From Dehalococcoidia bacterium (GTDB lineage: Bacteria; Chloroflexota; Dehalococcoidia; Dehalococcoidales; Fen-1064), in assembly GCA_030691775.1 (NCBI GenBank), contig JAUYDN010000141.1:1-34905 (forward strand): DNA of 34,905 bases. Reading direction: 5' to 3'. Shown here in pieces: positions 2,315 through 5,863 of the stretch (position 1 is its first letter; the number at the start of each line of letters is the position of its first letter). The notes beneath the pieces were generated by a model. That model saw nothing but the letters and a program-made list of their open reading frames with translations, ran no database searches and was not told where the DNA came from. The position numbers were made by a program, and so were the translations under genes.

Positions 2315-5038
2315 ATGAAAACCCCCCGCCTCGTTATCTTCGACGGCAATGCCCTCATCCACCGCGCTTTTCACGCATTGCCGCCGCTCACCGTGCGCAA
2401 GACCGGTGAAATGGTGGGGGCGGTCTACGGCTTCGCGCAAATATTGCTCAAGGCGCTCAACGAGCTTCAGCCCACCCATTACGCCATCGCCTTCGATAAA
2501 GCCGCACCCACCTTCCGTCACATCATCTATGGCGAGTACAAGGCAACGCGCAAAGAGACCTCCCCCGACCTGATACCGCAGTTCAAGAGGGTGCACGAAC
2601 TCGTAGAGGCATTCAAAATGCCCATCTATGAAGTCGAGGGTTTCGAGGCAGATGACGTCCTGGGGACCCTCGCAAGGCAAGCAAGCGAACAGGGAATCGA
2701 GACCGTCATCGTCACCGGCGATGCTGATGTAATGCAACTGGTTACGGACAAAGTGAAGGTTTTTTACCCCCGCGCCCGCGGTAGCTTCAGTGACGCCGAC
2801 ATCTTCGATTCCGCCGCCGTCGAGACAAAATACGGCATCACGCCGCAATTCATTGCTGATTACAAAGCGCTCAAGGGCGACCCATCGGACAACATTACCG
2901 GGGTGCCGGGCATCGGGGAAAAGACCGCCGTCAAACTCATCCAGCAGTCCGGCAGTATCGAAGAAATCTACAAGCGCCTTGACGAGGTAACGCCGCCGAA
3001 GCTGCAAAACCTGCTCCGTGAGCACGAAGCCGAGGCGCGACAGAGCAAAGAGCTGGCAACCATCGTCACCAATGCCCCTGTAAACCTCGACCTCGAGGCT
3101 TGCCAGGTGTCTAATTTCGACCGCTCCAGTGTGGCGGAACTACTCCGCGAGCTAGAGTTTGTCAGCCTGCTTTCAAAACTCCCCGATACGGTCACGGCTC
3201 AACCTTCTGAAACCATCCCGGAGAAAAAAACTCCGCCGCGGAAACGCGATTACTTAATTGTATCGACTACTGAAGCCCTGGAAAAACTGGTTGAACGGCT
3301 TGGCGAGGTGGATACTTTCTCGTTCGATGTCGAAACGGACAACCAGAATGCGATGCTCGCACAGCTTGTGGGCATTTCGTTTTCACCCGCTGATGGTGAA
3401 GCACATTACATCCCCGTGGGGCATACCGGTCTTTCCAGTGTGGCGCAGTTACCACTCCCGGATGTAATCAGCAGACTCAAGCCGGTGCTGGAAAATGCAA
3501 AGCCCAAAACCGCTCACGATAGCAAGTTCGATATAACCGTGCTCGCGGAAGCCGGCATCGAGATAAACAACCTCACCTTCGATACGATGGTCGCCGGCTA
3601 CCTCCTTTCGGAGCAGGCGCTCAATCTCAAGGTGCTGGCATTCAAGTGGCTCGGCCTGGAGCTGACCCCCATTTCCGACCTCATCGGCACGGGCGCCAGG
3701 CAGATCCCGATGTCTCGCGTGGAGATTGAAAAAACGGCGGATTTCTCCTGCGCACACGCCGATGTGACCCGTCAGCTCAATACTGTACTCGGTGATGAAC
3801 TCAAGCGCAAAGAGCTTTGGCAGTTGTTCGATGAGGTGGAAATGCCGCTGGTGCCGGTGCTCGTGCATATGGAACGCGCCGGGATATTGCTGGATGCGCC
3901 GCTATTGAAAACGATGTCCGAACAAATGGGCGAACAGCTCAAGATGCTGGAGGGGGAAATATACAGAGCCGCGAGGCAGGGGTTCAATATCAATTCGCCC
4001 AAACAACTGGGTGAAATCCTGTTCGATAAAATGGGCTTACCCTCACCGAAAAAGAAGGGCGGGAGTTATTCTACCGCGGCGAGTATCCTCGAAGGGCTCC
4101 GCGGCGCCGACCCCGTCATCGAATACATCCTGGAATACCGACAGCTAACCAAGTTAAAATCGACCTATATCGATGCCCTGCCAGCGCTTATCAACCCGAA
4201 GACAGGCAGGGTGCACACGAGCTTTAACCAGACGCGGACGACTACCGGACGGCTTTCCTCCAGCGACCCCAACCTTCAGAATATCCCTATCCGTGGTGAG
4301 CAAGGCAGACAGATACGGGAGGCATTCATCGCGCCACCGGGCTGTGTGCTTCTCGGTGCGGACTACTCACAAATCGACCTGCGTTCCCTGGCGCACCTTT
4401 CCCGGGATGAAAACCTGCTGAATGCCTTCGGCAAGGACGAGGACATCCACTCCACCACCGCCAGCCAGCTTTTTGGCGTGGAACCGGCAAAGGTTACGGC
4501 AGATATGCGGCGTCTCGCCAAGACAGTGAACTTCGGCGTTATTTACGGTATGAGCGAGTTCGGACTGGGGCAAGCCACAGAACTTTCCCGTGAAGACGCC
4601 GGAAAATTCATCCGCGCCTATTTTGAAAAGTATCCGGGCGTCGGGAAGTACCTCGATGAGACCAAACAACAGGCACGGCGGGAAGGCTATGTACAGACAA
4701 TACTCGGCAGACAACGGCCAATTCCTGAAATCAATTCCGCCAACCGCATCCTGCGCGAAGCCGCGGAACGTATGGCAATCAACATGCCCGTGCAGGGCAC
4801 CTCCGCGGACATCATCAAGAAAGCGATGGTCGATATATACCGCGTGATGGTTGAGCGCAAGTTGAAGAGCAAGCTGCTATTACAGGTACACGACGAGCTT
4901 GTCTTCGAAGTCCCGGAGACGGAACAGAACGAGATGCGGCGGTTGGTGCCGGAATTGATGGCGAACACTATCAAACTCGCCGTGCCCCTGAAAGTCGATG
5001 TGAAGGTCGGACGGAACTGGGGAGAAATGGAGAAATAG
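2315..5038 (+). CDS. polA: DNA polymerase I
   Basis: Full-length 907-aa family A polymerase used in Okazaki-fragment processing and excision repair. Residues 1 to about 290 form the 5' nuclease (LVIFDGNALIHRAFHALPP, VEGFEADDVLG, KGDPSDNITGVPGIGEKTA). The 3'-5' exonuclease follows: Exo I FDVETDN with D338/E340, Exo II AHDSKFD. The Exo III site reads F477-S-C-A-H481 where E. coli has Y497xxxD501, so proofreading may be weakened. The polymerase domain has motif B (RRLAKTVNFGVIYG) and motif C (LLQVHDELVFE) intact, but motif A is DYSQIDLR: D688 replaces the Glu (E. coli E710) that acts as the sugar steric gate. There is no ribosome binding site; a TATAAT six bases before the ATG points to leaderless expression. 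mutM follows with no gap, so the two are probably one transcript for repair. Confidence 0.98.
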   Translation: MKTPRLVIFDGNALIHRAFHALPPLTVRKTGEMVGAVYGFAQILLKALNELQPTHYAIAFDKAAPTFRHIIYGEYKATRKETSPDLIPQFKRVHELVEAFKMPIYEVEGFEADDVLGTLARQASEQGIETVIVTGDADVMQLVTDKVKVFYPRARGSFSDADIFDSAAVETKYGITPQFIADYKALKGDPSDNITGVPGIGEKTAVKLIQQSGSIEEIYKRLDEVTPPKLQNLLREHEAEARQSKELATIVTNAPVNLDLEACQVSNFDRSSVAELLRELEFVSLLSKLPDTVTAQPSETIPEKKTPPRKRDYLIVSTTEALEKLVERLGEVDTFSFDVETDNQNAMLAQLVGISFSPADGEAHYIPVGHTGLSSVAQLPLPDVISRLKPVLENAKPKTAHDSKFDITVLAEAGIEINNLTFDTMVAGYLLSEQALNLKVLAFKWLGLELTPISDLIGTGARQIPMSRVEIEKTADFSCAHADVTRQLNTVLGDELKRKELWQLFDEVEMPLVPVLVHMERAGILLDAPLLKTMSEQMGEQLKMLEGEIYRAARQGFNINSPKQLGEILFDKMGLPSPKKKGGSYSTAASILEGLRGADPVIEYILEYRQLTKLKSTYIDALPALINPKTGRVHTSFNQTRTTTGRLSSSDPNLQNIPIRGEQGRQIREAFIAPPGCVLLGADYSQIDLRSLAHLSRDENLLNAFGKDEDIHSTTASQLFGVEPAKVTADMRRLAKTVNFGVIYGMSEFGLGQATELSREDAGKFIRAYFEKYPGVGKYLDETKQQARREGYVQTILGRQRPIPEINSANRILREAAERMAINMPVQGTSADIIKKAMVDIYRVMVERKLKSKLLLQVHDELVFEVPETEQNEMRRLVPELMANTIKLAVPLKVDVKVGRNWGEMEK

Positions 5039-5863
5039 ATGCCCGAACTGCCTGAAGTCGAGACCGTCAAGAATGAAATCGCCCCGCATGTCCTCGGCCG
5101 TACGATAAAGGGCGTCACACTGCTCTGGGAAGGCATTGTTAAAGAGACCCCGGTCAAAGAGTTCCTCGACCGCGTCACCGGGCGCGTAGTTACTGCAATA
5201 CACCGGCACGGCAAGTACCTGCTCTTCAACCTGGATAGCGGTGATTCTCTGGTCGTGCACCTCAAGATGACCGGCTCGCTGTTTGCCGGCGCAAGCGAAC
5301 CACCGCAATATACACGCGCCATTATCCAACTGGAGAACGGGCAGAACATCTATTTTCGCGACCCGCGCAAGTTCGGCGTACTCAAGGTGGTCCAGGACTC
5401 AAACGTCATCGAAAGCAAGCTGGGACCGGAGCCGCTGGAGAAAGAGTTCACGGTCAGAATCTTCGCGGAGCGGCTGAAGGGCAGGAAAGCGCCCATCAAA
5501 GCGTTGTTGCTCGACCAGAAGTTCCTGGCAGGGGTGGGGAACATGTACGCGGACGAAGCCCTCTTTGCATCCCGCATCCACCCGGAACGTATTAGCGGCA
5601 GTCTGACCGCCGACGAAGTAAAGCGGTTGCATAAAGCAATCCGCGAAGTTTTGAAAGCGGCAATCATAAAAAAAGGCGCCAGTATCGTTACATACTACCG
5701 GCCGGACGGCTCAAAGGGCACGGCACAAACGGAATTCAATGTGGCACACGGGCAGGTGGAAAAATGCCACGTCTGCGGAACACCGATAAAACGGATTGTG
5801 GTGCGGGGGCGGGGCACTTACTTTTGCCCGAAGTGCCAGCCCGCCGCAGGCGGGAAACTCTAA
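5039..5863 (+). CDS. mutM: Formamidopyrimidine-DNA glycosylase
   Basis: Removes 8-oxoguanine and other oxidised purines and nicks the abasic site. The 274-aa protein has the catalytic N-terminus MPELPEVE (P2 nucleophile and E3 after Met removal), the conserved RHGKYLLF with K59, the helix-two-turn-helix region around LLLDQKFLAGVGNMYADE, and a C-terminal zinc finger with C243/C246 and C263/C266. Length is normal for Fpg. Its ATG follows the polA stop codon directly, so translation is likely coupled. The ribosome site would be GGGGAG/GGAG in the polA end. Grouping with polA makes sense: Pol I fills the gap left by the glycosylase. Confidence 0.97.
   Translation: MPELPEVETVKNEIAPHVLGRTIKGVTLLWEGIVKETPVKEFLDRVTGRVVTAIHRHGKYLLFNLDSGDSLVVHLKMTGSLFAGASEPPQYTRAIIQLENGQNIYFRDPRKFGVLKVVQDSNVIESKLGPEPLEKEFTVRIFAERLKGRKAPIKALLLDQKFLAGVGNMYADEALFASRIHPERISGSLTADEVKRLHKAIREVLKAAIIKKGASIVTYYRPDGSKGTAQTEFNVAHGQVEKCHVCGTPIKRIVVRGRGTYFCPKCQPAAGGKL

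What the first reader, a model, noticed from the sequence alone, without database searches (positions are those of the whole stretch)
4361..4384. Pol I motif A has Asp at the steric-gate Glu
The nearly invariant DYSQIELR reads DYSQIDLR (D688). The Glu (E710 in E. coli, E615 in Taq) positions the sugar and excludes ribonucleotides. An Asp would be expected to lower dNTP affinity or change sugar selection unless compensated.
Basis: partly seen in the sequence, partly recalled or inferred. Interest (0 to 1): 0.55.

Follow-up and report, generated by a model that had tools for sequence, protein, structure and literature searches.

The report
Natural Asp steric gate in PolA
The window's DNA polymerase I does carry Asp instead of Glu at the residue that keeps RNA building blocks out of DNA, but this is a recurrent natural variant shared by its whole bacterial order and arisen several times elsewhere, nearly always (within its phylum) together with one matching change at a second site, which makes the pair worth testing in the laboratory.

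Summary
Window 4376-4378 (GAC) encodes Asp688 in motif A of an intact polA (2315-5038), at the position of E. coli Glu710 / Taq Glu615. It is not a one-off or an error: all 48 motif-A sequences from the same order are Asp; Asp is common in the class and turns up in other classes of the phylum, sometimes beside Glu in one family. It is also in Elusimicrobiota, Desulfobulbia, Syntrophomonas, Moranbacteria and others. The tree needs 6-7 Glu/Asp switches within Chloroflexota.

One column stands out: Taq Ala757 (helix Q, QGT[A/S]AD; Ser830 here, 4802-4804). In 350 Chloroflexota genomes: Glu+Ala 187, Asp+Ser/Thr 44, Glu+Ser/Thr 4, Asp+Ala 2. The two follow each other on the tree (correlated-evolution LR 46.7, p about 2e-9), including a reversal to Glu with Ala. 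The other catalytic residues compared are intact. Outside the phylum Asp+Ala is common, so the partner is favoured, not required.

Most likely this is a normal Pol I with a working, shorter steric gate and a coupled packing or hydrogen-bond change. Altered sugar selection is possible but untested. The interest lies in the coupling rather than the single Asp.

The parts
2315..5038 (+). polA, DNA polymerase I, 907 aa: 5' nuclease domain, 3'-5' exonuclease-like domain, polymerase domain
   Evidence: (NF004397 1108 bits, cut-off 720; TIGR00593 1003 bits, cut-off 600)
4361..4384 (+). motif A, DYSQIDLR (residues 683-690)
4376..4378 (+). Asp688 (GAC), steric-gate position: E. coli Glu710, Taq Glu615, Bst Glu658
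4802..4804 (+). Ser830 (TCC), Taq 757 position in helix Q (QGTSAD); the one column that co-varies strongly with the steric-gate residue
4520..4546 (+). O-helix segment with Lys736, Phe740 and Tyr744 (Taq K663, F667, Y671), unchanged
4892..4894 (+). motif C catalytic Asp860 (Taq D785), unchanged
3743..3757 (+). exo III motif of the proofreading domain reads FSCAH (Tyr to Phe, Asp to His)

Best explanation
This is an ordinary, functional DNA polymerase I whose steric gate is Asp instead of Glu. The carboxylate still closes the bottom of the nucleotide pocket next to Tyr744 and Phe740 and still excludes the ribose 2'-OH, but it is one methylene shorter. In this lineage the change is accommodated by Ala to Ser at position 830 on the helix that also carries Gln827 (Taq Q754), probably by filling the space or adding a hydrogen bond in the carboxylate-Tyr-Gln network. 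Shown here: the residue, its fixation in the order, its repeated independent appearance, the coupling to position 757, and the unchanged remaining pocket. Inferred: the physical contact, the retained sugar discrimination, and the order of the two changes.
For: All order relatives have Asp. In a phylum sample of 141 genomes, 10 of the 99 matching genomes outside the class have Asp, in four families (counted by hand). Asp also occurs in Elusimicrobiota, Desulfobulbia, Bacillota, Moraniibacteriota and others. Six to seven switches on the Chloroflexota tree, with 757 following in 5.9 of 6 independent pairs and opposing in none. In a scan of 3668 column-by-residue tests 757 scores 6.1, the next column 3.6. 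Correlated-evolution LR 46.7, p 1.8e-9, against at most 14.6 for seven other candidate columns. 350-genome table 187/44/4/2. R573, N583, D610, Q613, H639, R659, K663, F667, Y671, N750, Q754, H784 and D785 are conserved in both groups apart from N583 in two Asp rows. Predicted fold is canonical: pLDDT 91, TM 0.95 to closed Bst complexes. A Bst simulation paper describes Glu658-Tyr714 and Tyr714-Gln797 hydrogen bonds (PMC12756729), the network next to 757. Taq E615D keeps activity (PMC4215692).
Against: No kinetics. No coordinates were available, so 615-757 contact was not measured. Outside Chloroflexota many Asp enzymes keep Ala757 (17 of 17 Thermodesulfobacteriota), and four Chloroflexota Glu enzymes have Ser/Thr there, so the partner is neither necessary nor exclusive. 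The 757 column was found by scanning, not predicted in advance.
Confidence: 0.72

Rival explanations
1. Neutral drift: Asp and Glu are functionally interchangeable at this site and Ser/Ala at 757 is hitch-hiking lineage signal.
For: Chemically conservative change; Taq E615D is active (PMC4215692); Asp+Ala757 is stable in Desulfobulbia.
Against: Hitch-hiking does not explain 757 following 615 in about 6 of 6 independent pairs, including the reversal to Glu, or LR 46.7. Asp is kept without a single exception across 48 order sequences.
Confidence: 0.15
2. Altered sugar gate: Asp/Ser is an adaptive state with changed selectivity (more rNMP, or altered dideoxy or 2'-modified substrate use, or reverse transcription), repaired by RNase HII.
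For: Recurrent parallel change at the sugar-discriminating residue with a coupled partner. RNase HII is present in the genome, though it is near universal. Many named Asp carriers belong to groups I know as anaerobes, a biased sample.
Against: F667 and Y671 unchanged; the carboxylate is kept; no assay; the recorded loss of rNTP discrimination concerns E658A, which removes the carboxylate (PMC7200780).
Confidence: 0.12
3. Sequencing or assembly error, or a decayed polA.
For: Fragmented assembly (276 contigs).
Against: Asp in all relatives; full-length ORF over curated cut-offs.
Confidence: 0.01

Closest known systems
Bacterial DNA polymerase I (E. coli, Taq, Bst; TIGR00593 / NF004397)
   Same: Domain layout, motifs A-C, O-helix, predicted fold; equivalog cut-offs passed.
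   Different: Asp for Glu at the steric gate, Ser for Ala at Taq 757; exo III motif FSCAH instead of YxxxD.
Taq E615D from motif A random mutagenesis (Patel and Loeb 2000, via PMC4215692)
   Same: Same substitution in a family-A polymerase; not inactive.
   Different: Laboratory mutant without the 757 partner; here it is a natural state conserved across an order.
Bst E658A (structures 4dqq, 4dqr; PMC7200780)
   Same: Change of the same steric-gate residue.
   Different: Alanine removes the carboxylate and rNTP discrimination; Asp keeps a carboxylate.
Leu762 phage PolA
   Same: The 20 viral sequences of one type found here also have Asp at the steric gate.
   Different: They combine it with Leu at 762 and Phe at 766; the window keeps Phe and Tyr.

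Membership tests
DNA polymerase I (PolA, family A) | Passes curated equivalog model cut-offs | tested here: met
DNA polymerase I (PolA, family A) | Catalytic Asp of motifs A and C; Lys/Arg/Phe/Tyr of the O-helix | tested here: met
   D683, D860, K736, F740, Y744
DNA polymerase I (PolA, family A) | Glu at the steric gate (called universally conserved in PMC4882331; typical rather than defining) | tested here: not met
   Asp688; the same in 48 of 48 order sequences
DNA polymerase I (PolA, family A) | 5' nuclease domain at the N-terminus | tested here: met
   residues 5-290 align with the Taq 5' nuclease domain
Proofreading-competent Pol I | DEDD exonuclease residues (E. coli D355, E357, D424, D501) | tested here: not met
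DNA polymerase with relaxed sugar selection | Measurable rNMP incorporation above normal Pol I | not testable with these tools
   needs enzyme assay

The most novel reading that the evidence does not exclude
Asp615 with Ser/Thr757 is a second, repeatedly evolved architecture of the family-A steric gate with its own sugar-selection properties, reached and left by a two-residue switch.
Probability: 0.17. Interest if true: 0.6.

Novelty: new variant of a known kind. Interest (0 to 1): 0.4.

Why it matters
Glu710 of Pol I is described as universally conserved in family A (PMC4882331). Whole bacterial groups, mostly uncultured, have Asp, and within Chloroflexota evolution has switched between the two at least six times, with one partner residue following. 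That gives natural Glu and Asp enzyme pairs within single families for testing how the steric gate sets sugar choice, and points to a second-shell site (Taq A757 / E. coli A852) that I found no engineering study naming in the papers I read.

Tried and rejected
Read error: rejected by the relatives. Compensation by O-helix or catalytic residues: none changed. Columns 618, 664 and 665 looked associated in raw counts but are weak once the tree is considered. Glu controls from other phyla: the genome search accepts only G handles as centre, so independence of Asp origins outside Chloroflexota was not tested beyond placement in one tree. Literature: 0 held papers contain DYSQIDLR; the E710D search gave no polymerase paper; key Klenow papers are not held. 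An early impression that Ser/Thr757 never occurs with Glu was wrong: four genomes have it.

Full report
1. What is there. The window holds a complete polA at 2315-5038 (+), 907 aa, which passes NCBIfam equivalog cut-offs for DNA polymerase I. Motif A at 4361-4384 reads DYSQIDLR. The sixth residue, Asp688 (GAC, 4376-4378), aligns without gaps to Taq Glu615 and its M. smegmatis equivalent, i.e. E. coli Glu710 / Bst Glu658.

2. Is it peculiar to this protein? No. Among genomes of the same order every motif A recovered is Asp: 30 loci (including the window's own) and 18, with codons GAC or GAT. In the class the residue is mixed by family. In a phylum sample of 141 genomes 116 matched a neutral motif pattern; outside the class 10 of 99 have Asp, in families f111, f119, f122 and f125, of which f111, f119 and f125 also hold Glu members (counted from its list). 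The order is probably Dehalococcoidales (inference). The published statement that E710 is universally conserved (PMC4882331) is therefore too strong.

3. Is it compensated? 242 polymerase domains (177 Asp, 65 Glu) were aligned. The residues around the pocket (R573, N583, D610, Q613, H639, R659, K663, F667, Y671, N750, Q754, H784, D785 in Taq numbering) are the same in both groups, save N583 in two Asp rows. One column differs sharply: Taq Ala757, in the QGTAAD segment of helix Q. In Chloroflexota, Asp rows have Ser 70, Thr 4, Ala 4; Glu rows have Ala 59 of 63 and no Ser or Thr. On a tree built without the focal columns, all columns were scanned with 3668 column-by-residue-set tests: 757 is the top column by far (about 6.1 of 7 independent pairs in the same direction, 0 opposite; next best column 3.6). 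A better tree of 98 non-redundant sequences gives 7 Glu/Asp changes, at least 6 forced by well-supported branches, with 757 following in 5.9 of 6 pairs. They include family f72 (L247, L248), Glu with Ala nested inside the Asp/Ser clade, i.e. a reversal in both sites; its place rests on branches of 85-99% support. A Pagel-type test gives LR 46.7 (p 1.8e-9) against 5.0-14.6 for the seven comparison columns; even multiplied by 3668 tests it stays below 1e-5.

4. A wider count. Exact DNA patterns spanning both sites in 350 Chloroflexota genomes, about half not used before: Glu+Ala 187, Asp+Ser/Thr 44, Asp+Ala 2, Glu+Ser/Thr 4, odds ratio about 1000 without correction for kinship. The Ser/Thr pattern also admits Cys, Trp or Arg codons; the four exceptions were read and are 3 Ser and 1 Thr, the 44 were not all read. 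So the earlier impression of exclusivity was wrong, but the coupling is very strong. Outside the phylum it is looser: Elusimicrobiota 23 Ser and 1 Ala, Thermodesulfobacteriota 17 Ala and 0 Ser. Ser757 is favoured with Asp, not needed for it.

5. How it most likely works. Established: the steric-gate Glu hydrogen-bonds the conserved Tyr of the O-helix in the closed complex and excludes the 2'-OH (PMC12756729; PMC7200780); that Tyr also hydrogen-bonds Gln797 of Bst (Taq Q754), one helical turn from 757 (PMC12756729). Inference: shortening the carboxylate by one methylene is balanced by a larger polar residue (Ser or Thr) on that helix, keeping the carboxylate-Tyr-Gln network and the pocket floor. 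Since a carboxylate is kept and Taq E615D is active (PMC4215692), I expect near-normal dNTP selectivity.

6. Membership and novelty. It is a member of DNA polymerase I by all sequence tests; Glu at the gate is typical but plainly not defining. The proofreading site appears impaired in this species (see noticed items). I found no held paper containing DYSQIDLR or naming the 615-757 coupling in those read; absence from an open-licence library is weak evidence. Rated as a new variant of a known kind.

7. Limits. The 757 partner was found by scanning; out-of-sample support is partial because families overlap. The tree comes from the gene itself. Glu-type controls outside Chloroflexota were few (Taq, M. 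smegmatis, and phage sequences), so the number of origins outside the phylum is not established. No functional claim was tested.

Noticed in passing
window 3743-3757: The proofreading exo III motif (E. coli Y497xxxD501) reads FSCAH, with Asp to His and Tyr to Phe, while the other exo acids are kept; the same-family relatives checked (L003, L004, L009-L011, L017, L028, L030) keep Tyr and Asp there. The 3'-5' exonuclease is probably lost or weak in this species.
   Followed up: partly
L273-L282, L284-L293 (viral contigs): 20 of 21 phage PolAs with an Asp gate share DYSQVDFR together with Leu at E. coli 762 and Phe at 766 (NLGLSFG or NLGLAFG), while none of the Glu-type viral sequences aligned at that column has Leu762. 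The Asp gate may be the compensating change that PMC13228545 says native Leu762 polymerases need.
   Followed up: partly
L008 and L037 (genome G016); L237 and L238 (genome G201); genome G428: Some Chloroflexota genomes hold two PolA genes. In G428 one matches the Glu/Ala pattern and the other the Asp/Ser pattern: a duplicated polymerase with both gate types, or contamination.
   Followed up: no
L213-L216 (family f111, genus g212): Asp-gate enzymes of this genus have Thr at 757 and HDD instead of HDE in motif C, while all Glu rows aligned, including the sister genus g203, have HDE.
   Followed up: no
window 5035-5042: An ORF resembling formamidopyrimidine-DNA glycosylase (5039-5863) starts directly after the polA stop codon, suggesting one repair transcript (gene name from reading its sequence, not searched).
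   Followed up: no
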